Virus record (IMG/VR): IMGVR_UViG_3300042945_003354
Location: 34,464-98,463 of that record
Direction: 5' to 3' (one strand)
Length of the DNA stretch: 64,000 bases
DNA from: a virus
Under the pieces are notes generated by a model. It was not told where the DNA came from, searched no databases, and was given only the letters and a program-made list of their open reading frames with translations. The position numbers and the translations under genes were made by a program. How positions within the stretch are numbered: position 1 is the first letter of the stretch; each line of letters starts with the position of its first letter. Shown here in pieces: positions 754 through 25,313 of the stretch.

Positions 754-1161
754 TTATTTGCTTCCTCCCCAGATTCCGTCCCCTGCTAGCCTTCTATCCC
801 GGTCTGCGTGCACTTCGTGTAAGTGCAACTTCCTCCGTATCTCGTCGCGCTCCGCGAACTTCGATGAGTAAGGGCGCTTGCCTTTGAGCGCGACAGAGAG
901 CTGCCGGTTGAGTTCGTCGAGCGCGACATCGCCCTCACGTTCAGCGGTCTGCACGTAATCCAGCATCCCGTCCACCTGCGGCAGGATTGCCAAGATCAGC
1001 TTGTCCCGGGTGCGCCAGTCGTCCGGATCCATTCCGAGCGCAAGCATCGCAGTGACGGCGATCGCGCTCGAGGCAGAGACGCCTTCTTCGTTGTCGAGTC
1101 GCCACACGCTACCTGACTTGCCTCGCCGAACTGCGAAGGGATTGGTTTTTGGTTTGCTCAT
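754..1161 (-). CDS. Hypothetical protein, last gene of the replication operon
   Basis: A 135-residue protein of unknown function. Its ATG (1159-1161) overlaps the TGA of the DnaB-type helicase gene in an ATGA, so it is probably translationally coupled to it. The N-terminus is basic (MSKPKTNPFAVRRGKSGSVW). The middle is helical, and the C-terminal half is highly charged with an RRKLHLHEVHADRDRR stretch. No Cys cluster, membrane segment or catalytic motif is visible. A helicase-accessory or DNA-binding role would fit the position but is only inference. Confidence 0.75.
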   Translation of the reverse strand: MSKPKTNPFAVRRGKSGSVWRLDNEEGVSASSAIAVTAMLALGMDPDDWRTRDKLILAILPQVDGMLDYVQTAEREGDVALDELNRQLSVALKGKRPYSSKFAERDEIRRKLHLHEVHADRDRRLAGDGIWGGSK

Positions 1162-3629: not shown

Positions 3630-3631
3630 GT

Positions 3632-3832
3632 TTACGCAGCCTCCTTGATGTAGTCCGAGGCCATCTTCTCACTCACTCCGCAGAGGACGGGCGTTTGATA
3701 CGCTGGCGAGCCGACGGTCTCATACACCGTGTAGGTTTTGAGCAGCACGACTTTGGTGTTCGACCATTTCTTCGTGACGGGACACTGCTCCGCTTCGTAG
3801 GTTCTGTCCCGCTCGTAGGTGAGCCTCTTCAT
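3632..3832 (-). CDS. Small hypothetical protein upstream of the helicase gene
   Basis: A 66-residue basic protein starting MKRLTYERDRTYEAEQCPVT. The ATG at 3830-3832 overlaps the TGA of the upstream gene in an ATGA, and this junction decides the start over a longer possible frame. It contains two Cys residues but no recognisable zinc motif. It ends 2 bases before the helicase start and is almost certainly co-transcribed and co-translated with it. Function unknown. Confidence 0.7.
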   Translation of the reverse strand: MKRLTYERDRTYEAEQCPVTKKWSNTKVVLLKTYTVYETVGSPAYQTPVLCGVSEKMASDYIKEAA

Positions 3833-4446
3833 TTGGGTTGGTTCTTTCGTTTGTTGAATTGTGCAGCCACACGTTCGTAGAGCACCCCGCGGTGCGCCAG
3901 CCACTTGGTCACGCGGCGGTCGGCCGACATCATCGCCAGGAGTTCCTGTGCCATGTAGAACATCGACTCCATGTCCATCCGGTGAACCGCGATGAGGTAG
4001 CGCACCTCGACCGGGTAGGACGTGGCGGTGGTGACGTCGGTCACGCCGGCCCGCTCCAGCTCCTGCCGCATCCGGGTGAACTCGAAGTCGCGACGCTCCA
4101 GGAACAGCTTGGCGCTGCGCTTGTCCACCACGACCTCGTAGGGCACCTGCAGGTAGTTGCTGAGCGCCTTGGTGAGATACTTCGACGAGAACAGCATGTT
4201 CGGCATGGGGCCGTCCGGATGCTTGTTGAACTTCGCCCAGTCGAATATCGCCTCCATCAGGATGTCCGGCTGCACGTCCCAGTCGTGCACGACGCTCGCC
4301 ATCTTCTCGATACGAGGCAGCATCAGCGAGCGTAGGCGCCGTTCGTCCAGCTTGCCGTGATGCCCGGCGTCCTCGAGCAGCTTGGCCTTCTGGTAGATGT
4401 AGTTGTCGAGGAGCCGCGTGACGAGGGTTGGGTCAATGTCCGGCAT
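3829..4446 (-). CDS. Hypothetical helical protein, possible helicase loader or replication accessory
   Basis: A 205-residue, mostly helical protein with no Cys cluster and no P-loop. Position is the only functional clue: it sits two genes upstream of the DnaB-type helicase, a common place for a helicase loader or primosome protein, but no loader motif can be seen. The start MPDIDPTL at 4446 overlaps the end of the preceding gene by 14 bases. An in-frame ATG at 4482 would lengthen the overlap to 50 bases and is less likely. It ends in a basic NKRKNQPK tail. Confidence 0.75.
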   Translation of the reverse strand: MPDIDPTLVTRLLDNYIYQKAKLLEDAGHHGKLDERRLRSLMLPRIEKMASVVHDWDVQPDILMEAIFDWAKFNKHPDGPMPNMLFSSKYLTKALSNYLQVPYEVVVDKRSAKLFLERRDFEFTRMRQELERAGVTDVTTATSYPVEVRYLIAVHRMDMESMFYMAQELLAMMSADRRVTKWLAHRGVLYERVAAQFNKRKNQPK

Positions 4447-4642
4447 TCTTGGTCTTCTGTTTGGACCTGGTGACTTGTCCAATGTTTGCGCGGTCGAACT
4501 TTATGCGACGTTTGGCGCCGTTCGGAAACACTCCGTGGACTTCGAAGCGCTCGATGCGCCACTCTGGATCGTCGAAAGTTTCACGAATTCTGTCCAATGT
4601 CCGTTCGATGGTCCTGCAGTCTTTTTGTGGGTCTTCTTTCAT
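4433..4642 (-). CDS. Small hypothetical protein
   Basis: A 69-residue charged protein starting MKEDPQKDCRTIERTLDR. Its ATG overlaps the TGA of the zinc-ribbon reading frame upstream in an ATGA. An N-terminal amphipathic helix is followed by a short beta-like segment (WRIERFEVHGVF) and a basic tail. No family recognised. Confidence 0.65.
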   Translation of the reverse strand: MKEDPQKDCRTIERTLDRIRETFDDPEWRIERFEVHGVFPNGAKRRIKFDRANIGQVTRSKQKTKNAGH

Positions 4643-4860
4643 GGTGGTGTCGTGGATGTTGATTTACCGCGTCGACGCTCAGCTTCGGGTGCGTGCTCAA
4701 GGCACGGCCAGACATTTCCGCAGTCACCGCAGCGTCCAGTCTGTGGGCACCGGATCTTCGGATGATGCGCCCCGCTGCGATGAAAGCCGCACTCGCAACA
4801 GGCAACCTCTTCACGGTGTCACTGTCGACCCACGAGCCGGTCGTAAGTCCTGTTGCTCAT
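4639..4860 (-). pseudogene. Small zinc-ribbon gene interrupted by an in-frame TGA
   Basis: The ATG at 4858-4860 overlaps the TGA of the RecU-like gene (ATGA). The same frame ends at a TGA (4639-4641) that overlaps the ATG of the next gene (ATGA). Both junctions match operon style, but codon 14 (4819-4821) is TGA. Downstream of it the frame encodes a convincing Cys-rich protein with EVACCECGF, RCPQTGRCGDCG and NVWPCLEHAP segments. There is no ATG, GTG or TTG after the internal stop that could restart this part. It may be a broken gene, a sequencing error, or a gene needing stop-codon readthrough. Confidence 0.6.
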
Positions 4861-13282: not shown

Positions 13283-14491
13283 CTATTCTTCATTTTCCCT
13301 GACGTCTGCTGCGACTAGGCGAGCCTCGATCAGATCTGCCACGATATTGCTGGCGTCGCTCTCGCCCCGGTGCAGGAGATCCAGCGCCGTCTTCTGCAGG
13401 TCTTCCCGGTCCTTGAATCGCTGACTCACGAAGTATTCCATCGTGAACTCCTTCTCGGAGTCCGGTGAATCTTTGACTCTCGCCGGATGCGCCTGCGTGT
13501 TGGGCAGCGGGTAGCACCGTATGACCGCGCGCTGGGCGTCCAGCATCGAGTGCAGCCGGTTGATCGTCTGCGGAAACTGCCGGTCGAACTGCACGACCGC
13601 CACAGGATGCTGCGCGGCCACCGGCTCGATACGCAGCATGAGCGCGTCGAGGTCCTCGGCGGTGCGCACCTCCGCGTTGATGAACGGACGGGTGTGAATC
13701 GGAATCGTCTCCTTCAGGACAGCGCCCTCGGCGGTCAGCCGGATGATCGGCACAGACTTGCCGATCGGCTCGCCGGCGTTGCACATCTCGGTCGACCCCG
13801 GGTAACCGATCAGGCACTTGCCTCCGCCGGGACGGTCCAGCTGCTGGAACCCCTGCAGGTGGATGTCGCCGAGCAGCCAGGCCTTGTTGTGCTTCGAGAT
13901 TGGCAGCTCGGATACGTGCAGCGGGTCCGGTGTGTGAATCGGAAACTTCACCACTCCGTCGATGAGTCCGTGGAACAGCACGACATCTGCCTGCCGCGCC
14001 CGCACGGTGATGTTCGCCAAGTCGCCGCGGAAGCTGGCTGCGGTGTGCGGCGTGAGCCCCACGATGCGGTAGCCACGGAAGACGACGCTGGAGTCGTCCA
14101 ACGGCACGATGCCTGTCTCACCTTCAAATAGCGTCTCGGTGTCGTCGTCCGTCAGATTTAACGCGCGCCCCGGAAACAGCGTCTGCAGCCACGTGGGCGT
14201 GCTCCAGTCGTGGTTGCCGGTGATGGTGAATGCCACCTTCCCGGCGCTCCGGATCATCTGGTCGATGTGCATCAGCTGCCCGATTACCTGCGGGCTCGGC
14301 CGCGGGCGGTCGAAGATGTCGCCGGTGATGCAGATGATGTCCGCGTGCTTCAGCGCCGCCTCGACTGCATTACGGAAGCCGTCGTAGAAGTCCTGGCCCC
14401 GACGGGCAGCCGCGTATTGTGAGTCTCGCAGGTGGGTGTCACCGATAAGTGCGATCAGAAGATCGCTGTTTGGGGTCGCATTTTTTGCCAT
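13283..14491 (-). CDS. SbcD/Mre11-type nuclease (T4 gp47-like)
   Basis: A 402-residue metallophosphoesterase. The five motifs appear in order: LIGDTHLRD, ITGDIFDRP, ITGNHDWS, VLFHGLID and LLGDIHLQGF. These ligate the two metal ions of Mre11-family exonuclease/endonucleases. The C-terminal 130 residues form the cap and Rad50-binding region. It pairs with the Rad50-like ATPase two genes downstream. The start overlaps the RNase H-like gene by 37 bases, and no later start precedes the first motif. Confidence 0.92.
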   Translation of the reverse strand: MAKNATPNSDLLIALIGDTHLRDSQYAAARRGQDFYDGFRNAVEAALKHADIICITGDIFDRPRPSPQVIGQLMHIDQMIRSAGKVAFTITGNHDWSTPTWLQTLFPGRALNLTDDDTETLFEGETGIVPLDDSSVVFRGYRIVGLTPHTAASFRGDLANITVRARQADVVLFHGLIDGVVKFPIHTPDPLHVSELPISKHNKAWLLGDIHLQGFQQLDRPGGGKCLIGYPGSTEMCNAGEPIGKSVPIIRLTAEGAVLKETIPIHTRPFINAEVRTAEDLDALMLRIEPVAAQHPVAVVQFDRQFPQTINRLHSMLDAQRAVIRCYPLPNTQAHPARVKDSPDSEKEFTMEYFVSQRFKDREDLQKTALDLLHRGESDASNIVADLIEARLVAADVRENEE

Positions 14492-15222
14492 TTTTCAGTA
14501 GGGTAAATTTTGGAAGCCGCTTCAGCCAATTCTTCGCGAGCCCCCTTGAGGAGAGCGCGCGCCGCGCCTGCGAGTGCATCACAAATCGCCTGCCCGTCCA
14601 CGACATTACGCGGGCGGCACATGGGCGTGATGCAAACGTGCTTGGCCATGAACGACCAACGCATCCACAGATCACGCTCCTTCAGCCGGGACATCAGCGG
14701 GTCGCCATCCTCGTTGTAGAGGAACGCGTGGGCGAGACTGCTGCGATCGGTGTACCAGAGAATCGAGACCCGGTCAGGTCCCGTGAATTGGTTCAGGATT
14801 CCCTCGGTGCCGATTTTGTAAAGCTCCGCGGAGTCAGTCGTCTGCTCCTGAAGCTCCCGCCCGCGCTCTGTCAGGATGGAGTGCACGCCATCCAGCAGGG
14901 CGCTGAACTCCGATCGGCTGACCGTGGACCCATAGGTGCCAGCGACGTAGCAACCGCGCGACACCGGCGCCCTGACCTCGCCGATCAGATCGATACGCTC
15001 CCAGACGGCCGCGTAGCCGCCCCATCCCTCGGTGCAGCCGGAGCCGTCGGTGTAGAGGACGCAGTCGTGCTCGTAAGGATCCGGGGCGACATCTTCGAGC
15101 CACTCGAACACGTCGGCGTAGCGCTCCTTGATCAGCTCACCGTCGACGGTCAGGTTATCCCACCAGGACGTCTCTTTTCGCCACTTGTGTTTGTTCCAGG
15201 TGTCACGGTTGTGGTGAGTCAT
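14455..15222 (-). CDS. RNase H-like protein
   Basis: A 255-residue protein. The pattern VLYTDGSGCTEGWGGYAAVW, then TVSRSEFSALLDGVHSIL, then ILWYTDRSSLAHAF matches the RNase H fold order (Asp in DGSG, Glu in the helix, Asp after a beta strand). A later DGQAICDALAG could hold the final Asp. Phages use RNase H to remove RNA primers, which suits its place among replication genes. A 50-residue N-terminal extension is unassigned. Overlaps the preceding stop by 20 bases. Confidence 0.75.
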   Translation of the reverse strand: MTHHNRDTWNKHKWRKETSWWDNLTVDGELIKERYADVFEWLEDVAPDPYEHDCVLYTDGSGCTEGWGGYAAVWERIDLIGEVRAPVSRGCYVAGTYGSTVSRSEFSALLDGVHSILTERGRELQEQTTDSAELYKIGTEGILNQFTGPDRVSILWYTDRSSLAHAFLYNEDGDPLMSRLKERDLWMRWSFMAKHVCITPMCRPRNVVDGQAICDALAGAARALLKGAREELAEAASKIYPTEKWQKMRPQTAIF

Positions 15223-15811
15223 CGTCGTCCGCTTCTGGAGTCCTCACGTTTCCGGCCGTCTCCTTTTCGTGCTGCTGCGCCGCGTCCAGAACGCTGCCGT
15301 TCGCGTCCTCTCCTTGTGGTAATTTCGGCACGGCGGGTGCGGTGGTCTCGACCGCCGTGATCAGGCGCCGGCTGGCAATTCGCTTCAGAGAGCCGACGTT
15401 CTGATGTTCCGCTTCTTCCATGAACGCAGCGATGAGAGGGCCGGCCATCTTGTCCGCCACCTCCTGCTGAATCTGCGCTTGAGCATGCGGTCGCATCTTG
15501 TCGCTCAGCATACCGGGCATGGATGATGTGCCAGTGACCTGCGTGAACGGCTGGTCGGCCCCGCGCACAATGCGGATGTCCCAGTAGATGCGGATGTCGC
15601 TGTCGTTGACCCCGACGACGCCCGAGTGGAAATCGATCAGCGGACGTTCGCGGTCCAGCAGCCTGGCGTTGAGTTCGTTGGCCTCCTGGATGGCCTTGAC
15701 CGCGCTCTGCAGTGCGGCCAAGACATCGACGGACGGCGCGTCAGGCGTTGAATTTCGCCCGGATTTCTTCTGCTTCGCTTTCGACTGGTTCGGTGGGTGG
15801 TGATTGCTCAT
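15203..15811 (-). CDS. Hypothetical protein
   Basis: A 202-residue protein. The start MSNHHPPNQSKAK gives a 71-base overlap with the preceding gene, which is large for this genome, so the true start could be further in. The N-terminus is basic and disordered. The middle (RIYWDIRIVRGADQPFTQV) looks folded and the C-terminus is acidic and disordered. It resembles small single-strand-binding or accessory proteins in layout only. Function unknown. Confidence 0.65.
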   Translation of the reverse strand: MSNHHPPNQSKAKQKKSGRNSTPDAPSVDVLAALQSAVKAIQEANELNARLLDRERPLIDFHSGVVGVNDSDIRIYWDIRIVRGADQPFTQVTGTSSMPGMLSDKMRPHAQAQIQQEVADKMAGPLIAAFMEEAEHQNVGSLKRIASRRLITAVETTAPAVPKLPQGEDANGSVLDAAQQHEKETAGNVRTPEADDDDSPQP

Positions 15812-15935
15812 TTTGAATATCGCGTAGTTTCTCGCCTTGCTCACGCGTCCAGATCAAATAGAGTGACGTGCGTGCTTTTCCGAACCTGTCCGCACGTTCG
15901 TTTTCCAACAACACCGTCGATTTTGATTGAGCCAT
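15741..15935 (-). CDS. Small hypothetical protein, divergent to terminase
   Basis: A 64-residue protein, MAQSKSTVLLENERADRFGK and onward, with charged helical content. Its ATG (15933-15935) interlocks with the plus-strand terminase ATG (15934-15936) within the sequence CATG, so no room exists for separate leaders. Either this start or the terminase start may be misplaced. First gene of the left operon. Confidence 0.55.
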   Translation of the reverse strand: MAQSKSTVLLENERADRFGKARTSLYLIWTREQGEKLRDIQNEQSPPTEPVESEAEEIRAKFNA

Positions 15936-16368
15936 GTTAGCGCAAGGTGAATTTATTTATGATTTGATGAACGCCTTGAGGAGAGACCCTCAGCGGGCGG
16001 CAAAGGTGTCCGCCGCTCTGCAGCGCATGGACACGGTAACGGCGGCCGTGGCGGATGGCAAGGCCACACGCAGCGACATCGCCAAGATCGAGGCTGAGAT
16101 CGTCCCGCTGTGCGGTTTCAACTTCGGCCTTCTCATTCCTCGATTCTTCCCGCGTTACCCATTCGAGAAGCCGCTCGACCTGAGCGCGCGCCCGTTCATG
16201 TATGCCATGACCGCGCTGGCGCCGGGCAGCGTCGTCACCCTAAAGGCTGGACGTCAGGTCGGGAAATGCGCCGACGGCGACACCACGGTCGTCACCGACC
16301 GCGGCGTCGCCACGTTGCACGACATCTTCGCGGAGGGGATCCCAGTTCAGGCCAGCATCGTGCGATAG
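15934..16368 (+). CDS. Terminase large subunit, N-terminal half fused to an N-intein
   Basis: A 144-residue product. Residues 1-111 are the N-terminal extein of the packaging ATPase, ending in the Walker A lead LKAGRQVGK. Residues 112-144 begin CADGDTTVVTDRGVATLHDI, a typical intein block A with Cys1, and then stop at TAG 16366-16368. The continuation of Walker A (STGLGAAELF) is encoded 1.5 kb downstream by a separate gene after a C-intein. Together they make a split-intein terminase. The 3' end overlaps the opposing gene by 22 bases. The start interlocks with a divergent gene; ATG 15967 is an alternative. Confidence 0.9.
   Translation: MLAQGEFIYDLMNALRRDPQRAAKVSAALQRMDTVTAAVADGKATRSDIAKIEAEIVPLCGFNFGLLIPRFFPRYPFEKPLDLSARPFMYAMTALAPGSVVTLKAGRQVGKCADGDTTVVTDRGVATLHDIFAEGIPVQASIVR
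16267..16365 (+). other. N-intein (33 residues) of the split terminase intein
   Basis: Begins at Cys codon 16267-16269 directly after the P-loop Lys. Only block A (CADGDTTVVT) is present; block B lies on the C-terminal piece. This is the atypical split position known from the AceL-TerL type of natural split inteins, whose N-piece is about 25 residues. Confidence 0.88.
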
Positions 16369-17309
16369 CTGCGAATGGCTTCTGCTCCGTGGATCTCGAC
16401 GTATGACGGGTCGAACACTTCCGCCTCCGCAGGCGTGTAGATCAGCCCGTCCTTCAGCTTGTCGATCAGGTGCTGCGAGAACCGGTAGCGGACGCCGGGC
16501 GAAGCGAGCATCCACTTCGACTGCAGCGTGAGGATCATCTCGCCGGACATCCCGGCTGCGAATCCGCAATCCCGCAGCAGATCGGTGATGTAGTTTTCCC
16601 GGATGCGCGCGAAACGATCCGCCAGCGTCTCGAAGTGGTGTCTGGCGCTCAGCGGCCAGCTTTTCTTCAGCCACTTGTGGCGCTCGAGGTAGATGTCCTG
16701 CATGCTCGGGGACAGGGCGCTCACGTCGGCGTAGAGGCAGGACACTCCGCAGGTCCACATCTTGTGCTCGCCGACGTAGAACTGATCAAGGTCCGCCTTG
16801 CCCGATTCCATGATCATGCGGCGGCAGAGCATGCCGAAGTTGGAATGATCCGCGGCGCTGGCTCCGGCGTGATCCTCCGCGCACGCCAGCAGCGACAGCT
16901 GCGGTTGACGCAGCGCGGTCCGCATCTGCTGCAGCAGGATGCTACGGTCAATCTGCAGCGCCGTTGCGTCCGGGCCCGTATATGGGTATTCCGGCTTCGG
17001 CAACTTCTTGCTCAGCTTTCCGGCTGCGTCATACATCTCGACGATCCGCTCGTCGCGACGCAGGAAGAACGCATCGCTCTCGTCTTTCCTCGCTGCCTTG
17101 CGCATCCATATTTCGGCGTCTTCGACGTCGATTCGGTAGATGGTGATGTCCGGCCTGCCCGGGTCGTTGCTGGCGGCCTGGACGCTGACGAGTCCTGCGA
17201 GGAACGGGGATGGACGCGGAGTCCATTGCTGCTTTTTTGGTAGTTTCTGAGTGGTGTTCAAATGGTTGAGTTGTGGACGACCATACAGCGTGGAGACGGC
17301 GGACGGCAA
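16347..17309 (-). CDS. Unknown protein encoded inside the split-intein locus, opposite strand
   Basis: An open frame of about 320 residues lies between the two terminase halves and runs against them. It has no ATG near the front. TTG at 17307-17309 or TTG at 17259-17261 are possible starts, and the frame stays open to about 17430. Segments include RPDITIYRIDVEDAEIW, FYVGEHKMWTCGVSCLYADV and a helical C-terminus. No LAGLIDADG, HNH, GIY-YIG or clear PD-(D/E)XK motif is visible. In other fractured-gene split-intein loci the intervening gene is a free-standing homing endonuclease, so that role is plausible by position only. Confidence 0.6.
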   Translation of the reverse strand: MPSAVSTLYGRPQLNHLNTTQKLPKKQQWTPRPSPFLAGLVSVQAASNDPGRPDITIYRIDVEDAEIWMRKAARKDESDAFFLRRDERIVEMYDAAGKLSKKLPKPEYPYTGPDATALQIDRSILLQQMRTALRQPQLSLLACAEDHAGASAADHSNFGMLCRRMIMESGKADLDQFYVGEHKMWTCGVSCLYADVSALSPSMQDIYLERHKWLKKSWPLSARHHFETLADRFARIRENYITDLLRDCGFAAGMSGEMILTLQSKWMLASPGVRYRFSQHLIDKLKDGLIYTPAEAEVFDPSYVEIHGAEAIRSYRTMLA

Positions 17310-17513
17310 GTCCGTGGATGTCTTCGCTGCCCCTTCGTCCGTAATGGGGAATAATGCGCGCGGTCGTTCCGTGCCGACCGTGTTCCTGCGCCTGTTCAGG
17401 TGAGCCCCCGCCGCTTGCGCTTGCGGGGATCTTCATCTTGACGCTATTTGCGATGCGCCTACGATGCCAAACATCGCGTGCTGTTGGAAACCGAAATAGC
17501 TGAGGAAAGATCC

Positions 17514-17834
17514 GTGGAGCATCTCGACTTAAAAGTCGCTGCTCCGGGTGGTGCTTTTGTGCGTGTCACCCACGTCTGCCGAACCGTGCCGATGCCGGTG
17601 TGGCGAATCCTGACGCGAGATTTCGCGTTGGAGTGCGCCGGCAAGCATTTGGTAAGGAGACTCAGTGGATATGGGCAGGTGGATCAATGCCTGCCCGGTG
17701 ACTTCATACTGACTCAAGACGGCTGGCAGCCCGTCACTGCATGTGCGCCGGTGGGTGAGGAACGCGAGATGTTCGACCTCCGTGTGGAGGGCGAGGATCA
17801 CGCATACTTCACCTCCGGGATTGCCAGCCACAAT
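17514..17834 (+). other. C-intein (107 residues) of the split terminase intein
   Basis: Contains block B-like RILTRDFALECAGKHLV (with the His), a LPGDFILTQDGW turn, block F MFDLRVEGEDHAYFTSG and block G IASHN, followed by extein Ser (17835). There is no nuclease domain. Length and block content match atypically split terminase inteins whose C-piece is about 104 residues. Confidence 0.88.
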
Positions 17835-19394
17835 TCCACGGGCCTCGGGGCCGCTGAGCTGTTCAAGCTCAGCGTGGTTCCAAATTACCGCTCCATCTAC
17901 CTGACCCCGCTGAGGGAGCAGAGCAAGACGATGGCGGACAAGCTGCTCAACATGCAGCGCGGCTCGATCTGTCCCCCGGCGTATTTCACCTCCCGCGGCT
18001 ACCGCAACAACATGTATTACAAGGAGTCGCCACAGGGAGGCTCGCTGAAGCTGATGCACATCCTGACGGACCCGACAAAGATCCGCGGCGAAAGCGTGCC
18101 CACCATCATCATCGATGAGAGCCAGGATTTCGACGCCGAGCATCTGCCGGAAATCGAGCAGGTTCAAAAAGCCTTTCCCGACGATCGTCTGACCGTGTTC
18201 GCCGGCACGTCGAAGCATCTCGATACCTGCCTGGAGGCTCAATACAACCTGGGCAGTCGCGGCGTGTGGCACGTGTATTGTCCGTGTCCGAAGAAGTTCC
18301 ACTCGCTTGGCGACGCAGAGCTCGTGCCGAAAATGATGGCCTCCGTGGAAGGCCTGCGCTGCCCGGACAACAAGCACATCAAGCTCAACCCCCTGATGGG
18401 GGAGTTCGTCCACGAAGACCGGTCTCGGCTGCGCGTCAACATGCCCAGCTTCCATCTGCCGCAGGTGATCGTGCCGGAGTATGCCCTCGGAAAGGGCTTC
18501 ATGGACATCTGGAAGGACTACAAAAAGTATCCTCTCAAGAAGTTCCTGCAGGAGGTCTGGGGTATCGCAGTCGAGTCCGGGCTGACCGAACTCAACGAGG
18601 AAGATTTGAAGCGGTGCTGCACCACCAAGACGTTCGCGCAGACGCAGGAGGACTGCCTCGCCGGACGTTCGCGCTACATGTATCTGTTCTCCGGCGTGGA
18701 CTGGGGCGGCTCGGACTGGGAGCCGGCGTATCGCAGCAAACTCTCCTACACGGTGCATACGATTTACGGGATGCGCGGCGACGGGAAGATGGACCTAGTC
18801 TACGCCTTCCGCTACTCCGGCATGAACTACCGCGAGATCGCACAGAACATCGTCGAGCAGCACAACAAGTATAAGAGCTTCGCGATGGGCACCGACAACG
18901 GCGGCGGCGCTTACTACAACGCCTACATGCGGGACTGCGGACGCATCCGGACGGAATCGATCATTCACTTTCAGTATACCGACACCAAGCTGATGCTGGA
19001 CCGCATCAAGCACCCGGAGGCGCACATCATGTCGCTGCACCGGTCGGACTCCCTCTCGGCTCTGCTTGCCGACATCAAGGACCAGAACATCTCATGGCCA
19101 CGCTGGGACGAGTCCAGCCCATTCGTGTTGGACTGCCTGAACATCCGGAGAAACATAGCCGAAGCGCCGTCCGGTCGCACCATCATGCGCTACATCAAGG
19201 CTGGGGCGCGGTCGGATGACTTCCTGCAGTCTACCAACTACGCGTGCATGATGAAGCGCATCGTGCGCAACGAATCGCTCATCCCGAACAAGCAGATCAT
19301 GGACGAGCTGCGGACGTTGTTCGGTCTGTCCATCCCGACCGATCTGGCGTCGCGGATGGGCGACATGTTCGAGGGCGGCTACGTGGGCGGGTAA
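17514..19394 (+). CDS. C-intein fused to the C-terminal half of terminase large subunit
   Basis: A 626-residue product. The start is chosen as GTG 17514 because GAGGA (17502-17506) lies 7 bases upstream; TTG 17448 is an alternative without such a site. Residues 1-107 are the C-intein, ending SGIASHN. The extein begins STGLGAAELF and completes Walker A. It carries Walker B TIIIDESQDF, coupling motif VFAGTSKH and an RNase H-like nuclease with SGVDWGGSDW and MGTDNGGGAYY. The family cuts concatemers and pumps DNA into proheads. Spliced terminase would be about 630 residues, a normal size. Confidence 0.92.
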   Translation: MEHLDLKVAAPGGAFVRVTHVCRTVPMPVWRILTRDFALECAGKHLVRRLSGYGQVDQCLPGDFILTQDGWQPVTACAPVGEEREMFDLRVEGEDHAYFTSGIASHNSTGLGAAELFKLSVVPNYRSIYLTPLREQSKTMADKLLNMQRGSICPPAYFTSRGYRNNMYYKESPQGGSLKLMHILTDPTKIRGESVPTIIIDESQDFDAEHLPEIEQVQKAFPDDRLTVFAGTSKHLDTCLEAQYNLGSRGVWHVYCPCPKKFHSLGDAELVPKMMASVEGLRCPDNKHIKLNPLMGEFVHEDRSRLRVNMPSFHLPQVIVPEYALGKGFMDIWKDYKKYPLKKFLQEVWGIAVESGLTELNEEDLKRCCTTKTFAQTQEDCLAGRSRYMYLFSGVDWGGSDWEPAYRSKLSYTVHTIYGMRGDGKMDLVYAFRYSGMNYREIAQNIVEQHNKYKSFAMGTDNGGGAYYNAYMRDCGRIRTESIIHFQYTDTKLMLDRIKHPEAHIMSLHRSDSLSALLADIKDQNISWPRWDESSPFVLDCLNIRRNIAEAPSGRTIMRYIKAGARSDDFLQSTNYACMMKRIVRNESLIPNKQIMDELRTLFGLSIPTDLASRMGDMFEGGYVGG

Positions 19395-19420
19395 TTTCTG
19401 TAGTAGGTAAAGAAGACGCC

Positions 19421-19446
19421 GGCGCGGCCCCACCTGGGGCCGCGCC
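19421..19446. terminator. Convergent hairpin terminator
   Basis: A perfect 11-bp stem (19421-19431 with 19436-19446) with a 4-base loop lies between the terminase stop and the stop of the minus-strand gene at 19460. The minus-strand side continues CGTCTTCTTTACCTAC, the recurrent tail of this window, so it mainly ends the leftward cassette. Confidence 0.8.
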
Positions 19447-19459
19447 ATGCGCAGACGAC

Positions 19460-19942
19460 TTAGATGTTTTTTCGTTCTGCCGCCTCGGCGGCGATCATCG
19501 CCGACATCAGTGGGGCGGCGTCAGTCGGCAGCACTTTCTTGATCGCCATCGGACGACACATGCCGTGTGTGTATGCCGACGCCTCCATCATGTCAGCTGC
19601 GCTGGGCATGCAATCGTTAGCGCGCGCAGACTTTGCGGTTTCCCCGCAGCACCCACGGCCGCACGGGCCGCAGTAGGTGCCGGAGGCGTGGCTCCTGCAG
19701 CTGCAGCCGCAGCGGCACTCGCAGAAGCTCGGGAGCGGCGGCGTGTAGAGACACACCCACTCGCCCAGCGCCTCGCGGCGGCCCACTTCAATCTGCGCCT
19801 CTTCCTCCGTCGCGTAGCGGTCGCCGACTAGCGCACGACTCTCCCCGGACCACACCCCGTATGGCAGCGGGGGTGTGATGCTAACGATATTGAGGCCTTC
19901 GCGCACAACAGTCAGCCCGTCACTTGTGATAGTGGTTTTCAT
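19460..19942 (-). CDS. Cys-rich hypothetical protein
   Basis: A 160-residue protein. A folded N-terminal part (MKTTITSDGLTVVREGLNIV) is followed by a very dense cysteine segment with FCECRCGCSCRS and YCGPCGRGCCG, about ten Cys in 30 residues. The C-terminus is helical and Ala-rich. Such spacing suggests metal clusters or disulfides. AAGGGGG upstream of the ATG is a good ribosome site. It lies in the third of three promoter-terminator cassettes, about 200 bases after the promoter. Function unknown. Confidence 0.65.
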   Translation of the reverse strand: MKTTITSDGLTVVREGLNIVSITPPLPYGVWSGESRALVGDRYATEEEAQIEVGRREALGEWVCLYTPPLPSFCECRCGCSCRSHASGTYCGPCGRGCCGETAKSARANDCMPSAADMMEASAYTHGMCRPMAIKKVLPTDAAPLMSAMIAAEAAERKNI

Positions 19943-20014
19943 AACGACAACCCCCTTAGCCCGTCCTTCAACAGGCGTTGGCGTCCAGACTCGGGGGAAG
20001 TCCAGAAGGCTGAC

Positions 20015-20131
20015 TCAGCATGACGCCCCGGAAGTGGGGAACCCGGGCGCCGTTCGAAGCAGCGCCCGGGTCTTGTCGTCATTGCCTGTCGGCGTGCACA
20101 CACACAGCCACCAGACGAATCTGGTAACCAT
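20015..20131 (-). CDS. Possible 38-residue small protein after a conserved promoter
   Basis: ATG 20129-20131 lies 13 bases after the -10 box at 20145-20150 and opens a 38-codon frame (MVTRFVWWLCVCTPTGNDDK...) ending TGA at 20015-20017. There is no ribosome site, so translation would start from a nearly leaderless mRNA, as for the neighbouring cassette. The same 19943-20130 stretch also holds a 10-bp GC hairpin (20041-20050 with 20062-20071) and could instead be a structured leader for the gene at 19942. Confidence 0.3.
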   Translation of the reverse strand: MVTRFVWWLCVCTPTGNDDKTRALLRTAPGFPTSGASC

Positions 20132-20144
20132 GTATATACAAAGT

Positions 20145-20172
20145 ATTATGACACGGAAGGGTCTGGAATTGC
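20145..20172 (-). promoter_or_regulatory. Conserved promoter, copy A
   Basis: On the minus strand: GCAATT (20167-20172), 16 bases, CATAAT (20145-20150), then ACTTTGT. It shares box sequences, spacing and flanking GTGTCATAA with two other copies at 20615 and 20984. It follows a terminator at 20197 and faces the Cys-rich gene. Confidence 0.75.
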
Positions 20173-20196
20173 ACGGGGTCCAACCAGGTAAAGGAA

Positions 20197-20232
20197 GTGC
20201 CGCCGCGGCCCCCGAAGGAGCCGCGGCGGCAC
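20197..20232 (-). terminator. Hairpin terminator of the middle cassette
   Basis: A 13-bp GC stem (20197-20209 with 20220-20232) starts 7 bases past the stop of the gene at 20239. On the minus strand it continues TTCCTTTACCTGG, the recurrent tail, and runs straight into promoter copy A. Confidence 0.85.
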
Positions 20233-20238
20233 GTTGCG

Positions 20239-20607
20239 TTACAGGGCGGGGTCGGCGCCAGCAAGGAGGCTGCCGGTGGTGCGCAGGCGCTCGACGAGTT
20301 CCCGCAGTCTGGCAGCGACGCCAGCCACGAACGGGATCTCGTAGTCGAGGTCCGTTGGTCCGCTAAGGACCGCCGGCAGCCACCCGCCGTCATCGTCGTC
20401 GGGCTTGGTCGACGCTTCGAGCCAGAGAACGTCGGCGAGGTTTTTGGAAGTGAACTCCGAGAGGAGTTCCTTCCGGTGTTTCTCCAGCGCAGCGATAACT
20501 GACCAGCCCTTGCGGGCTGCGTCATCACTGGCCATGGTTCCGAGCTGTTTGACCAGCTCACACAGTTCAGCCGCTTTTGGCGGCATCATGGTATTGGTGG
20601 TGTCCAT
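20239..20607 (-). CDS. Hypothetical protein from a leaderless transcript
   Basis: A 122-residue protein, MDTTNTMMPPKAAELCELVK and onward. It is helical and acidic with a DDDDGG turn. The ATG (20605-20607) lies 7 bases past the CATAAG box, exactly where transcription should start, so the mRNA is probably leaderless. A longer frame reaching 20922 crosses a terminator and a promoter and is rejected. The gene forms a one-gene cassette bounded by promoter copy B and the hairpin at 20197. Function unknown. Confidence 0.7.
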   Translation of the reverse strand: MDTTNTMMPPKAAELCELVKQLGTMASDDAARKGWSVIAALEKHRKELLSEFTSKNLADVLWLEASTKPDDDDGGWLPAVLSGPTDLDYEIPFVAGVAARLRELVERLRTTGSLLAGADPAL

Positions 20608-20614
20608 ACAAAGT

Positions 20615-20642
20615 CTTATGACACCGCGCGGTCTCGAATTGC
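20615..20642 (-). promoter_or_regulatory. Conserved promoter, copy B (leaderless start)
   Basis: GCAATT (20637-20642), 16 bases, CATAAG (20615-20620), ACTTTGT, then ATG of the 122-residue gene. The upstream box begins a few bases after the tail of the terminator at 20660. Confidence 0.78.
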
Positions 20643-20649
20643 GGCAGGT

Positions 20650-20977
20650 AAAGAAGACGAGCCGGCGCGGCCTCGTGGGCCGCGCCGGCTGTTTCGTAAA
20701 GTGAACCGGGCGGGACCTCAGCCCCGCCCGGTGTATCGAGGCGATACGGTATCGCAGCACGACGCTGCGATTGATGAACACCAACCGCTCGAAGAGGCGC
20801 AGGACTCGCCTGCAGCTTTTCGAGCGGGGTGCGAAACGAAAAAGAACGGACACCGTATCCGTCAGCCAGCGGCGCATCTGTTGCTGTAGATGATCCCACG
20901 CATGACGCAGGATGAACTTCACAACAGATGCGCGGGCTGACGAGGCGTGATGTGTTTAGACGGCGAACACCACTCAG
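20650..20977 (-). ncRNA. Candidate structured non-coding RNA, about 325 bases
   Basis: Runs from promoter copy C to the terminator at 20660. No frame within it has a normal start plus ribosome site and stays inside the unit. It contains, in plus coordinates, a long helix 20861-20867/20935-20941 continued by 20872-20882/20923-20933 (18 bp with a small internal loop); a hairpin 20785-20793/20819-20827 with an inner 5-bp stem; perfect 8-bp 20751-20758/20764-20771; 6-bp 20733-20738/20742-20747; and 10-bp 20705-20714/20723-20732. I recognise no known RNA family. Confidence 0.6.
20660..20690 (-). terminator. Hairpin terminator of the RNA cassette
   Basis: A perfect 13-bp stem (20660-20672 with 20678-20690) with a 5-base loop. 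The minus-strand continuation is CGTCTTCTTTACCTGCC, followed at once by promoter copy B. Confidence 0.88.
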
Positions 20978-20983
20978 CAAAGT

Positions 20984-21011
20984 ATTATGACGCAAGATGA
21001 CGCCAAATTGC
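20984..21011 (-). promoter_or_regulatory. Conserved promoter, copy C (drives the candidate RNA)
   Basis: GCAATT (21006-21011), 16 bases, CATAAT (20984-20989), ACTTTG. The upstream box lies 1 base past the stop codon of the gene ending at 21013. No ATG follows at the expected start, unlike copies A and B. Confidence 0.72.
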
Positions 21012-21012
21012 G

Positions 21013-21642
21013 TCAAGCATCCGAGTCGTCTTTGAACTCGGCCGCGACCGCTGCATACTCCTCATCCATCGCGCGCAGCATGTCGGTCGGGACTCCCAGC
21101 GCACGCATCTGGTCGAGCACCATCAGGTATGCCCGCTCGACCTCTGTCGCATTCTGATCCTGATCCTCTTGCTCGTATTCGAGCGCATCCTGGATGTATC
21201 GCCGCACCGCATTCGAGAATGTCGGCGGATCGACGGAGTCGCTCGCCATCCCCATTTCGAGCACCGCCCACATGATCTCCGTAGCGTCCAGGTCATCGAA
21301 GATCAGCGTGTCGCCGAGGTCACCGTCGAACAAAGCGGTAGCGACCGCCACGAACACATCCGCGTCATACCAGAATTGTCCGTTCGTCAGCCCAGTGATG
21401 ATCGCGTTGAGTTTGTTCTCCCCCTCCTCGGTCACCCAGGTTCCATACCGGGTAAACAGGTCTGACCACATCTCAGATGGATCCATCTGCTCCACGCCTG
21501 CCTCAGCATCCCCCATGACCGCGGGGCCGAAGGCGTGGAGCGCAATGACAAACAGGACGATACCAGACGTGTCAGCATCTCCGAGGGCCTTCCTTATCTC
21601 GCCCTCGTCCAGTTTGACAGATGCCGTCATCAAGCTGCTCAT
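21013..21642 (-). CDS. Acidic hypothetical protein
   Basis: A 209-residue, strongly acidic, helical protein (MSSLMTASVKLDEGEIRKAL...) with ALEYEQEDQDQNATEVE and a DDSDA C-terminus. It has few aromatic residues apart from Trp/Tyr in the middle and no catalytic motif. It lies 19 bases downstream of the gene ending at 21662, so the two may share a transcript. DNA mimicry or a scaffold-like role is conceivable from charge alone. Confidence 0.7.
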   Translation of the reverse strand: MSSLMTASVKLDEGEIRKALGDADTSGIVLFVIALHAFGPAVMGDAEAGVEQMDPSEMWSDLFTRYGTWVTEEGENKLNAIITGLTNGQFWYDADVFVAVATALFDGDLGDTLIFDDLDATEIMWAVLEMGMASDSVDPPTFSNAVRRYIQDALEYEQEDQDQNATEVERAYLMVLDQMRALGVPTDMLRAMDEEYAAVAAEFKDDSDA

Positions 21643-21661
21643 AGTGCGTCAGGTGTTGGTT

Positions 21662-22729
21662 TCAGGCGGCGGCAGCGACGGTCAAACGTAGTAGAGTTTT
21701 TTGGTCGCTCTCCGGCCACTGCTCGACAGCGAGACTGAGGTCGCGCGCATCCCCGGTGTCCCGCAGACGTCTGAATGTATCCGCAGCAGATTTGCTGAGC
21801 CGATACTCCGCATCCATCGCATCGATCGAGCGGACTTCTTGCAGCGGCAGTAAAACGTCACGAACCAGGACGTGCTCCTTCGCCGCCTTTTCCGCATCAG
21901 AGGCGAGCGCGCCGCAGAACACGATGTCGAACGGCGTCGGCACCAGCGATGAGTGACGGTAGCTGTTGGAGACGCCAGCGACGAAATCGATGGTCGCAAT
22001 TTTTTCCATGGCAGCGTCCGGCTCGGCCTCCAGGTCGGCGAGGGCCGCCTGGTAGTCCGCCTCCACCTGCTCCCGGATTGTCGCGTCCTTGCAAAACTGC
22101 GACCGTCCCTGAATTCTTCGTGCGGCCTCCTCTGCGTCCGGGAAGCGCTCTACGCCGTGCCGCATGATGAGATCCGGCAGTTCGTGCGACACGTTATGGT
22201 CGTGCGCGGCTTTCACGATCTCTCTGGCCGCAGCCACGAACATCGGAAGCATGATGCGATTCTCCGCTGCCATCTTCGACAGCTCGAACGATGAATCGCG
22301 AACGTCGACCGCGTCGTTCAGCGGCAGCAGCTTGAAAACTTCGCCACCGAATTCGTCATTGATGGCGTAGCGGCCCTCCGTCAATTCGTCGAGCGAGGCG
22401 CTCTTCTCGAACTCGCCCGCGAACAGTTCAGCGTAGGGCAGGATGTCCTGCTCGATGCCATAGTGGGCGCACGCTGACTTGACGCGTTCCAGCGTGGCGT
22501 CGTCGTAATTATCCAGATGCGCGAATACGTTGAGTGCTGAGTGAAAGGCTGCAGACTTTGTGCAGATTGGCAGCAGCCGGCGCTTCGTGTCGGCGAAGGC
22601 TGCCGATGCTTTCTTCTCGAATTCCGCCGCCTCCGGCATGGGTTCGCTCGCGACCCAATCGGGAAACGGATGATGCATCTCTGCCCGATACAAAAACTTG
22701 GGATTGTTGAGGGTGTTGAAGTCTTGCAT
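21662..22729 (-). CDS. Hypothetical protein, possibly virion-associated
   Basis: A 355-residue protein. The start MQDFNTLNNPKFLYRAEMHH at 22729 is chosen because the open frame upstream of it is a low-quality extension running into the divergent gene. Mostly helical with repeated EEAARR/EKAAKE style segments and several Asp-rich turns. No domain recognised. The gap 22730-22847 to the divergent gene must carry promoters in both directions; a weak TTCCAC-17-TATGCT can be read toward this gene. Confidence 0.7.
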   Translation of the reverse strand: MQDFNTLNNPKFLYRAEMHHPFPDWVASEPMPEAAEFEKKASAAFADTKRRLLPICTKSAAFHSALNVFAHLDNYDDATLERVKSACAHYGIEQDILPYAELFAGEFEKSASLDELTEGRYAINDEFGGEVFKLLPLNDAVDVRDSSFELSKMAAENRIMLPMFVAAAREIVKAAHDHNVSHELPDLIMRHGVERFPDAEEAARRIQGRSQFCKDATIREQVEADYQAALADLEAEPDAAMEKIATIDFVAGVSNSYRHSSLVPTPFDIVFCGALASDAEKAAKEHVLVRDVLLPLQEVRSIDAMDAEYRLSKSAADTFRRLRDTGDARDLSLAVEQWPESDQKTLLRLTVAAAA

Positions 22730-22847
22730 GTTCGTGTCGTAGAGGTGGCTGTGGGTATGGAGACAGCATAGCCGAATTTTTGCAACTGTGGAAGTGCAAA
22801 TCCTGACGTGGACTTCCGGCAGAGGATCGCGATAATGCCAAACACCT

Positions 22848-25313
22848 GTGCGCATCATTACGGCAATCGACTTTCTGGGCATCCCAGTCACTCCACTGGA
22901 CACGTGGTCACATCAGCTGGTGTGTCCGTGGTGTCATGAGGATGCCTGGGCCGTCTCGGACTACCTCCAGTGCTACAATCCCACATGCACAACGCAGGCG
23001 GCGACAGCGGAGGATCTGCTCGCGCATCAGTTCGGCAGCTACGAGCAGGCCGCTCAAATCATGGCTCAAAAATATAAGCACGAGCCGGACTTTCAGAGGG
23101 CGAAAAGCCGCGAGGCGGAGCGCCTGGTGCTGGACACGTGGTTGCGGTTCTGCGTCACGCCGCCGACGAACGAAGCGCTGCAGGCAGCGGGCCGGCTGCA
23201 AGCCAGTGGTTACGGCATACGCAGCAGCCGTTTCGGCGCCATCGTGTTGGACTCCAATCAGATCAAGCAGCTCGTCGACGTGGCCATGTCCACCGGGGCG
23301 GAAGTTCCCGAGGCGTGGCAAAAAACACCACCATCGGTCGTCCGAGCGTTCTGTGTGCAGACGCGCCCGCACACCGTGGACCGCATCATCATCATGCACC
23401 ACAGCGGACGCACCGAGGAGATTATCTGGTACTCGCACGCCGCGGGGTTCTGTTCGCTGCTGGGGTTGCGCCCGAACCAGCCGCGCCTTCTGGCTGCCGA
23501 CATCGAGACGGCGCTGAAGCTTCAGCACGATCTGACCGCGGTTGGCAAATCGGAGGAGGTAGCCTGCATCCACCTGGACCTGCACCGCGGAGACCCGTGC
23601 CCGCGATGGGAAGTGCAGGAGCATCTGCTGACGGCGGTGCCACGTCACTGCGCAACGAGTTCGAACGCGAAGTTTTTCGGACCCAACGACATCGTGCGGA
23701 TACAGAACGCGATGGACCACTTCCCGGGCGCGGAGGGTAGCGTGCGAGGTCTGCCGATCGACCATGTCATCAATCTGCGTCCGCGCGAGCAAGCGGTGGC
23801 TTGGTCATCGCTGCGCTTCGCCATGATCGCCAGCATGGTGCCGTCGACGGTCGCGCAGATGCCGCCGGCCGCCGCCAGCATCTTCGAGCAGACTGGCACC
23901 AAGGCCGAGGACGCAGCGGCACTCATCGACTGTTACGCCAAGCAGGGACGTCAGCGCCTGGTGGAGGACGTGGAGATGCTGGCAATGACACGCGTGATCC
24001 AGCGCGACAGGTCGATGACCGTAAAGGAGACGGCAAACGACTACCGCATCATTCGCGGGGCTGACACAGCCCTGCTGACCAACTTCAGCCTGCGCATCAC
24101 CTCGAACGTCACGTTCCGCAACCACAAGGCCGACCGCTACTGCCAGGCCACGATGCGCTGCGGCAAGGCCGTCGTGGACGTCATCTTTCCGCAGACGCTG
24201 CTCAACGACCGCGTGCAAAGCCTGGAGGGAGAACTGCAGCGTCAGATCACCGTGGCAGACATGGTGACTCAGGCCGGCAGAATGCCGACAGTCATCGAGA
24301 TCAACAAGTTCAGGCAGTTCGTCGTCCCGCATCTGCGCACACAGGCGGCCAAGGCCAAACCGATCCGGGGCGTCGACATGCTCGGGTGGAGCGACAACCG
24401 CAAGTCGTTCATGTTCCCCGGCTTCGTCGTGACGGCGAACGGGACGGAAGCTGCCAGCCAGATTCTCTGTCCGTCCGTGCCTGTGCTGTCCCGATACAAG
24501 GCCATCCCGCTTGCGGGCTGGTCCGAGAGCTGCCCGGCGAATCTGGACTCTGCCTGCCACGACATCATCGCCATGATGGTGGCATCCAGTGTCCGATATT
24601 TCCGCCGGTGCATCACGCAGCCGATCATGATCGCGCAGAACTCAGCTGCGATGACCTTGCTGGACCGCCTGAGCACCGCGATGGGGCAGCACGAAATTCA
24701 TACGCTGAACAGCAACGCCAGAGAGGGCAGCCGCATCGAGGGAATCTACGGTTACCCGCTGCTGGCCGCGGGCGCCCGCAACGCAGGCCTGGCAGATTCG
24801 CAGACGCCGTTCCTGCATCTGACCGACAGCGGATACAGCATGTCCACTCCTACCGAGCCGCAGCAGGCGGCCGCCGCGGGCCGCGCAGCGCAGTTCTGTC
24901 TGAAGAAGGTGGTGGAGTGGTGCCTGGCGACCGGCGGCGACGCGTTCCAGGAGGTGCCGGCGTTGATCCATTACCACTCCCTGCTGCGCGAAGGCCGCTG
25001 GCTGATCGAGCAGGTGTGCGGACTCAATGGTTGGACTGTCTCACACCTGGAAGCGACCGCGCTGGAAAAGCTGCTCGCGCAGATACCATATGCCGAGGCC
25101 GGACGCCGCATCACACTCATCGACGGACAGGATCTCAGCATCGACATCCGCGGACTCGATCATGACCACGACGGTATTCTTCGGGAGGCGCGCGACATGG
25201 GCACCATCATCGCCATCAACGAGGATCAGCTGGCATCGTCCGCGGTCCGGCTACTGCCGGCCATCGCAACCTACTACGGGCAGGAGCCGGACGTCACTGT
25301 TGTGGTGTCGTGA
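22848..25313 (+). CDS. Large protein with an N-terminal primase-type zinc ribbon
   Basis: An 821-residue protein starting at GTG 22848. Cys26, Cys29, Cys42 and Cys47 form a CPWC...CYNPTC zinc ribbon of the kind heading DnaG-type primases and primase-helicases. A middle block (RLLAADIETALKLQHDLTAV) sits where a Toprim-like domain might be. A later VDMLGWSDNRKSFMFPGF recalls the GW...F..P signature of DUF927-type replication proteins. No clear P-loop is visible. A primase or replication-initiation role is the best guess. The coding strand is opposite to the neighbours, and its 3' end overlaps the DUF1353 gene by 20 bases. Confidence 0.6.
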   Translation: MRIITAIDFLGIPVTPLDTWSHQLVCPWCHEDAWAVSDYLQCYNPTCTTQAATAEDLLAHQFGSYEQAAQIMAQKYKHEPDFQRAKSREAERLVLDTWLRFCVTPPTNEALQAAGRLQASGYGIRSSRFGAIVLDSNQIKQLVDVAMSTGAEVPEAWQKTPPSVVRAFCVQTRPHTVDRIIIMHHSGRTEEIIWYSHAAGFCSLLGLRPNQPRLLAADIETALKLQHDLTAVGKSEEVACIHLDLHRGDPCPRWEVQEHLLTAVPRHCATSSNAKFFGPNDIVRIQNAMDHFPGAEGSVRGLPIDHVINLRPREQAVAWSSLRFAMIASMVPSTVAQMPPAAASIFEQTGTKAEDAAALIDCYAKQGRQRLVEDVEMLAMTRVIQRDRSMTVKETANDYRIIRGADTALLTNFSLRITSNVTFRNHKADRYCQATMRCGKAVVDVIFPQTLLNDRVQSLEGELQRQITVADMVTQAGRMPTVIEINKFRQFVVPHLRTQAAKAKPIRGVDMLGWSDNRKSFMFPGFVVTANGTEAASQILCPSVPVLSRYKAIPLAGWSESCPANLDSACHDIIAMMVASSVRYFRRCITQPIMIAQNSAAMTLLDRLSTAMGQHEIHTLNSNAREGSRIEGIYGYPLLAAGARNAGLADSQTPFLHLTDSGYSMSTPTEPQQAAAAGRAAQFCLKKVVEWCLATGGDAFQEVPALIHYHSLLREGRWLIEQVCGLNGWTVSHLEATALEKLLAQIPYAEAGRRITLIDGQDLSIDIRGLDHDHDGILREARDMGTIIAINEDQLASSAVRLLPAIATYYGQEPDVTVVVS

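What the first reader, a model, noticed from the sequence alone, without database searches (positions are those of the whole stretch)
15934..19394. Terminase large subunit made from two genes by an atypically split intein, with an opposing gene between the halves
Terminase N-extein ends in GRQVGK and is followed by a 33-residue N-intein with only block A. A separate gene starting at GTG 17514 (with GAGGA upstream) encodes a 107-residue C-intein with blocks B, F and G, ending HN|S, and then the rest of terminase. The piece lengths match the AceL-TerL kind of natural split intein. The 1.1-kb spacer holds a gene on the opposite strand that overlaps the N-intein end by 22 bases. A fast trans-splicing intein with a very short N-piece would also be a new member of a small, useful class.
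Basis: partly seen in the sequence, partly recalled or inferred. Interest (0 to 1): 0.9.

Follow-up and report, generated by a model that had tools for sequence, protein, structure and literature searches.

The report
Split-intein terminase with opposing spacer gene
A phage makes its DNA-packaging motor from two separate genes whose protein pieces are predicted to be stitched together by a split intein, a known but little-catalogued arrangement; the unusual part is an unrelated, unidentified gene sitting backwards between the two halves.

Summary
The terminase N-part (15934-16368, +) ends GRQVGK|C with a 33-aa IntN. The C-part (GTG 17514-19394, +) starts with a 107-aa IntC ending ASHN|S. Joining the exteins rebuilds Walker A (GRQVGKS) and raises terminase scores. 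IntC matches a profile of phage TerL inteins at E = 6e-19, unique in the window, and its AlphaFold model (pLDDT 94.9) best matches the atypically split VidaL intein (TM 0.87). IntN is found by an independent profile (E = 9e-4). The layout recurs in a relative at 66/77% identity, catalytic residues kept. No intact terminase was found in five related records (none of known completeness).
It is not rare, however. One IMG/VR scan gave about 30 further natural N/C pairs, 22 with spacers of at least 0.9 kb, usually carrying a same-strand nuclease gene (Vsr-like or GIY-YIG), i.e. 'fractured genes'. Opposing orientation also occurs in L072.
Unusual is the spacer gene (16347-17309, -): a real, selected gene (dN/dS 0.36) with no recognisable relative in any collection searched. 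By position it is probably this element's homing endonuclease, but nothing in its sequence shows that. Splicing itself is predicted, not shown.

The parts
15934..16266 (+). Terminase large subunit N-extein (111 aa, ends GRQVGK, first part of Walker A)
   Evidence: 69% identical codons to L004; dN/dS about 0.16; joined-extein search
16267..16365 (+). IntN, 33 aa, CADGDTTVVTDRGVATLHDIFAEGIPVQASIVR; Cys1 and block A; stop 16366-16368
   Evidence: independent IntN profile E = 9e-4; CADGDT invariant in L004
17514..17834 (+). IntC, 107 aa, starts GTG, ends ASHN; blocks B (ECAGKH), F (MFDL...), G (GIASHN)
   Evidence: profile E = 5.8e-19; model pLDDT 94.9, Foldseek best match VidaL, TMq 0.87
17835..19391 (+). 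Terminase large subunit C-extein (519 aa; Ser+1 is the Walker A Ser); stop 19392-19394
   Evidence: phrog_675; 79% identical to L004
16347..17309 (-). Spacer gene on the opposite strand, 320 aa from TTG (start uncertain), orphan family; candidate homing endonuclease by position only
   Evidence: dN/dS 0.36; coding score positive only in this frame of six; no relatives
16347..16368 (.). 22-base tail-to-tail overlap of the spacer gene with the end of the N-part
   Evidence: 20-base overlap in L004
17438..17465 (+). Promoter-like site TTGACG-16-TACGAT upstream of the C-part, with similar sequence in L004
   Evidence: 1 site found against 1.1 expected, so weak alone
17493..17516 (+). Shine-Dalgarno-like GAGGA and start codon (GTG here, TTG in L004)
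17330..17349 (-). 20-base stretch CCCCATTACGGACGAAGGGG identical in L004, just upstream of the spacer gene's TTG; role unknown

Best explanation
This is a 'fractured' terminase large-subunit gene. The two halves are made as separate proteins, N-extein-IntN and IntC-C-extein. The intein pieces associate, complete a HINT domain and trans-splice: Cys1 activates the Lys-Cys junction as a thioester, Ser+1 takes over the acyl group, Asn107 (helped by His106) cyclises, and the exteins are joined as GRQVGK-STGLG. That rebuilds Walker A, without which the ATPase should not work. The split falls after the first helix region, as in AceL-TerL and GOS-TerL. The opposing gene in the spacer most likely encodes the mobility function (a homing endonuclease or similar) that spread the intein into the conserved P-loop site, as nuclease genes do in comparable spacers. 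Shown by sequence: the two genes, the intein pieces, their conservation and (for IntC) predicted fold, and the reality of the spacer gene. Inferred: trans-splicing in the cell. Conjecture from position only: the spacer gene's role. The confidence given is for the split-intein terminase; for the spacer gene being a homing endonuclease it is about 0.5.
For: IntC profile E = 5.8e-19, unique in the window. Independent IntN profile E = 9e-4. AlphaFold IntC pLDDT 94.9, with 40 PDB matches at E <= 0.001, VidaL first and Cat among them, all inteins or intein-like domains. Family-invariant residues all present (G13, H45, D88, S105, H106, N107). Joined exteins score better than either part. Same site as contiguous TerL inteins of Ackermannviridae (RQSGK|C...SHN|T). 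Same layout in L004 with purifying selection. No second terminase in five records. Spacers at comparable loci carry nuclease genes, one of them opposing (L072).
Against: IntN alone is too short to match the whole-intein profile. Block B lacks the Thr that many inteins have (CAGKH here, also in L016). The spacer gene shows no nuclease similarity by HMM, profile-profile or fold search, though its model is poor (pLDDT 38). IntC has weaker host-like codon usage than the exteins. No expression or proteomic data.
Confidence: 0.9

Rival explanations
1. The spacer gene is not a homing endonuclease but an ordinary phage gene that became lodged between the halves; the fracture then depends only on the split intein.
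For: No similarity to any nuclease family or to the Vsr-like spacer nucleases; transcribed in the direction of most long neighbouring frames; under purifying selection (dN/dS 0.36).
Against: Size and position are those of spacer nuclease genes in about 20 other fractured loci; it has no paralogue or relative outside this position in five records.
Confidence: 0.4
2. The intein is decayed: the halves no longer splice and the terminase works as two non-covalent pieces.
For: Genes-in-pieces without splicing exist, such as the nuclease-split ribonucleotide reductase cited in PMC10448857; IntN changes faster than the exteins (53% identity to L004).
Against: The break lies inside Walker A between Lys and Ser; Cys1, His45, Asp88, His106, Asn107 and Ser+1 are kept in both diverged relatives; IntC dN/dS about 0.21.
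Confidence: 0.05
3. The interruption is removed at RNA level (group I or II intron).
For: Phage terminase genes do carry introns (PMC10448857).
Against: Intein protein motifs on both sides with a HINT fold; no Rfam intron match in 14000-23000; the spacer holds an opposing gene.
Confidence: 0.01
4. The layout is an assembly artefact.
For: The source is a metagenomic contig.
Against: Five records from different IMG/VR entries show it, one only 66-77% identical in the terminase parts.
Confidence: 0.01

Closest known systems
AceL-TerL and GOS-TerL atypically split inteins (as described in PMC13014065)
   Same: Terminase host, short IntN (AceL 25 aa), long IntC, split after the first helix (S2 position)
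   Different: IntN 33 aa; a very divergent lineage; the AceL sequence was not compared directly here (its paper is not held)
VidaL intein (PDB 6VGV)
   Same: Best structural match (TMq 0.87, rmsd 1.1, 24% identity) and best PDB sequence match (E 0.015)
   Different: VidaL is split earlier (S1, 16-aa IntN; PMC13014065)
Cat, consensus engineered atypical intein (PDB 6DSL; 'TerL CAT, 30 aa' in PMC13014065)
   Same: 28% identity over 105 columns, short IntN
   Different: Engineered consensus, not a natural locus
Fractured genes with split inteins and spacer homing endonucleases (Dassa et al. 2009, cited in PMC10448857 and PMC6892783)
   Same: Gene in two parts, each fused to half an intein, with a free-standing gene between them
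   Different: Spacer gene here is opposing and belongs to no recognised nuclease family
L072 (IMGVR_UViG_3300013233_000217)
   Same: terL split at the same Walker A site, spacer gene on the opposite strand overlapping the N-part end (about 8 bases)
   Different: Its spacer gene is recognisable (DUF7487 + MTES_1575 + Mom-like); IntC only 38% identical and not its sister in the tree
Contiguous TerL inteins of Ackermannviridae phages (Kuja, 2050H1, VP-1) and Vibrio phage VPALA
   Same: Same insertion site in Walker A and same intein family
   Different: One gene at this site, not split

Membership tests
Class 1 inteins (HINT splicing domain) | Nucleophile Cys/Ser at position 1, block B His, C-terminal His-Asn, Cys/Ser/Thr at +1 | tested here: met
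   C1, H45 (IntC numbering), H106-N107, S+1 present and kept in L004
Class 1 inteins (HINT splicing domain) | HINT fold | tested here: met
   IntC model pLDDT 94.9; Foldseek top matches are inteins, TMq about 0.7-0.9. The 33+107 pair was not modelled together.
Class 1 inteins (HINT splicing domain) | Catalyses splicing | not testable with these tools
   Needs co-expression or proteomics
Atypically split inteins | Natural split near the N-terminus, IntN of 15-37 aa, on separate genes | tested here: met
   IntN 33 aa, IntC 107 aa, 1,145 bases between stop and start; range from PMC13014065
Fractured genes with spacer homing endonuclease | Host gene split at the intein, halves encoded separately with a spacer gene between | tested here: met
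Fractured genes with spacer homing endonuclease | Spacer gene encodes an endonuclease | tested here: inconclusive
   No Pfam, PHROG, NCBIfam or PDB match, no similarity to 8 other spacer proteins; fold model too poor to judge
Phage terminase large subunit | Walker A and terminase domain homology | tested here: met
   Joined exteins: phrog_675 1.2e-15, phrog_2 3e-11; Pfam GpA_ATPase 7e-5, below its cut-off

The most novel reading that the evidence does not exclude
The opposing spacer gene is the first member of an unrecognised class of homing endonuclease (or other mobility enzyme), unrelated to the Vsr-like and GIY-YIG types found in other fractured terminases, which maintains a split intein in the Walker A motif of this phage group.
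Probability: 0.35. Interest if true: 0.6.

Novelty: new member of a known kind. Interest (0 to 1): 0.45.

Why it matters
It adds a deeply divergent natural split intein with a short N-piece to a class used in protein chemistry. The survey also shows that such inteins are a common, mostly unannotated reservoir in environmental phages, so some terminases are annotated without their N-terminal part (Delftia phage PhiW-14 gp17 is one). The orphan spacer gene makes a concrete question testable: must every fractured gene be maintained by a nuclease of a known family?

Tried and rejected
AlphaFold of the spacer protein from a two-sequence alignment gave pLDDT 38.5 and no PDB fold match at E <= 0.001. 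Spacer-gene searches in phages, plasmids, 84,980 genomes and IMG/VR (two scans) found only the same locus in the same phage group. Profile-profile comparison with eight other spacer proteins: probability 0.1%. By eye the spacer protein has a weak HNH-like stretch (EDHAGASAADHSNFGMLCRRM), but the spacing is short, the last His is missing and no HNH model matched, so it is not used as evidence. Hunting an intein-free relative of this terminase found none. Rfam gave only sub-threshold chance matches. The 20-base conserved motif is single-copy in the window, so it is not a repeated phage promoter. Key papers on fractured genes, GOS-TerL and Cat are not held; statements on them and on AceL-TerL come from citing papers.

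Full report
What is there. The window is part of a 98,463-base virus record. On the + strand, ATG 15934 to stop 16368 encodes 144 residues: a 111-residue terminase start ending GRQVGK, then CADGDTTVVTDRGVATLHDIFAEGIPVQASIVR. GTG 17514 to stop 19394 encodes VEHLDLKV...GIASHN followed by STGLG and the rest of a terminase. Between them, on the - strand, a 320-residue frame runs from TTG 17309 to 16347 and shares 22 bases with the end of the N-part.

Is the split terminase real? The C-part alone matches phrog_675 at 44.4 bits over residues 292-579. With the two exteins joined the same family scores 57.8 bits over 80-583, phrog_2 (terminase large subunit) appears at 43.8 bits over 97-592, and the Pfam ATPase match extends back across the junction to residue 100. 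Joining restores GRQVGKS, a Walker A motif. No other terminase was found in the record or in four related ones of 82-200 kb; their completeness is not known. Note that phrog_2 does not ring on the unspliced genomes either, so that model is only a partial control.

Is it an intein? tblastn of the C-part reached cultured phages through the intein region. Their TerL genes carry contiguous inteins of 159-179 residues at the same site, RQSGK|C...SHN|T, and Delftia phage PhiW-14 a split one. A profile of these five finds the window's IntC at E = 5.8e-19 and nothing else convincing in 1,526 six-frame segments. An IntN profile made from 12 other sequences finds the window's N-part at E = 9e-4 and the relative's at 2e-4. 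In an alignment of 39 IntC sequences the invariant Gly, block B His, block F Asp and Ser-His-Asn are all present here. AlphaFold gives the IntC at mean pLDDT 94.9. Foldseek's best PDB match is VidaL (TM 0.87, 1.1 A), with Cat, the consensus atypical intein, at 28% identity. The 33-residue IntN lies within the 15-37 range for natural atypically split inteins, and a split after the first helix is that of AceL-TerL and GOS-TerL (PMC13014065).

Conservation. Four further IMG/VR records have the locus. Three are nearly identical; the fourth, L004, has the same layout at 66% (N-part), 77% (C-part) and 51% (spacer gene) identity. dN/dS is about 0.16 for the N-extein, 0.14 for the C-extein, 0.21 for IntC and 0.36 for the spacer gene, whose changes concentrate at its own third codon positions; synonymous sites are near saturation, so these ratios are rough. 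A codon score trained on other window genes is positive for the spacer only in the annotated frame. Sequence similarity upstream of the C-part includes a TTGACG-16-TACGAT promoter-like site and GAGGA before GTG (here) or TTG (L004). The C-half thus probably has its own promoter and start, diverging from the spacer gene.

How unusual is it? A scan of IMG/VR with the phage TerL inteins gave 73 loci. About 20 Ackermannviridae-type records are contiguous. Most others have the IntC at the very start of a gene. N-parts were matched for about 30 of these; together with the window and the PhiW-14 record there are about 33 N/C pairs, 24 of them with spacers of at least 0.9 kb. These counts were made from the printed tables and a few pairings may be wrong. 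In 21 of those 24 the longest spacer frame is on the same strand; in three (the window, L004, L072) it opposes. Not all are terminases; several are other P-loop proteins (for example GETNVGK|C...SHN|S). Of 19 spacer proteins tested against Pfam, 12 gave matches, mostly weak and below the curated cut-off, to the MTES_1575/DUF559 nuclease families or to T5orf172, and many have zinc-finger or ROS/MUCR stretches. This is the known fractured-gene arrangement (Dassa et al. 2009, cited in PMC10448857 and PMC6892783). L072 even repeats the opposing, overlapping layout, with a DUF7487+MTES_1575+Mom-like gene. In an IntC tree the window and L004 sit on a very long branch of their own, and L072 groups elsewhere with good support, so the two opposing cases look independent; deep placement in that tree is unsure.

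What is left over. The window's spacer gene has no relative in Pfam, PHROGs, NCBIfam, PDB, phages, plasmids, 84,980 genomes, or IMG/VR outside this locus. The IMG/VR and genome scans start from short conserved peptides, so distant relatives could be missed. It does not resemble the other spacer nucleases, and could not be modelled. Its position and size suggest a homing endonuclease of an unrecognised type. That is inference by analogy; an unrelated resident gene is nearly as likely.

Verdict. It is a new, divergent member of a known kind, with an unexplained spacer gene.

Noticed in passing
window 1158-3629 (-): 823-aa protein with a full intein carrying a LAGLIDADG homing endonuclease (Hom_end_hint 5e-19) inside a KaiC/RecA-like ATPase, so this phage carries more than one intein.
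   Followed up: partly
Outside the window: record G000:C1:14047-14832 (-), also G004:C1:180866-181117: Further intein-domain matches (PF14890, E 7e-9 and 7e-7, below the curated cut-off) in long open frames of the same phage group.
   Followed up: no
L008 4422-4895 and 4899-6701 (Delftia phage PhiW-14): The deposited gp17 terminase lacks its N-part: an unannotated frame upstream ends TARQMGK|CVQGDT..., so the gene appears to be split by an intein.
   Followed up: partly
L009 4413-6632 and 6475-7758 (Vibrio phage VP-1): TerL carries a contiguous intein at Walker A and a second break with a GIY-YIG-like frame followed by an IntC-like start ending SHN|C.
   Followed up: no
L016 (IMGVR_UViG_3300023313_000070) 1628-4670: A terminase with apparently three interruptions: an atypically split intein about three residues upstream of the window's site, a contiguous intein, and a third break.
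   Followed up: no
L072 1393-2979 (-): Opposing spacer protein that looks like a fusion of DUF7487, a Vsr-like nuclease and a Mom-like domain.
   Followed up: no
L054, L058, L071, L072 (second junction ending N|C): Several terminases appear to be split twice, by a second atypical intein at a downstream site.
   Followed up: no
window 17330-17349 (-): 20-base stretch CCCCATTACGGACGAAGGGG identical in the diverged relative L004, just upstream of the spacer gene's TTG; single copy in the window.
   Followed up: partly
window 15933-15936: The terminase N-part (+) and the neighbouring frame 15741-15935 (-) start divergently from one shared CATG.
   Followed up: no
window 17514-17834: IntC has a lower host-like codon score (0.11) and third-position GC (0.67) than the C-extein (0.54; 0.85), as if acquired from elsewhere.
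   Followed up: no
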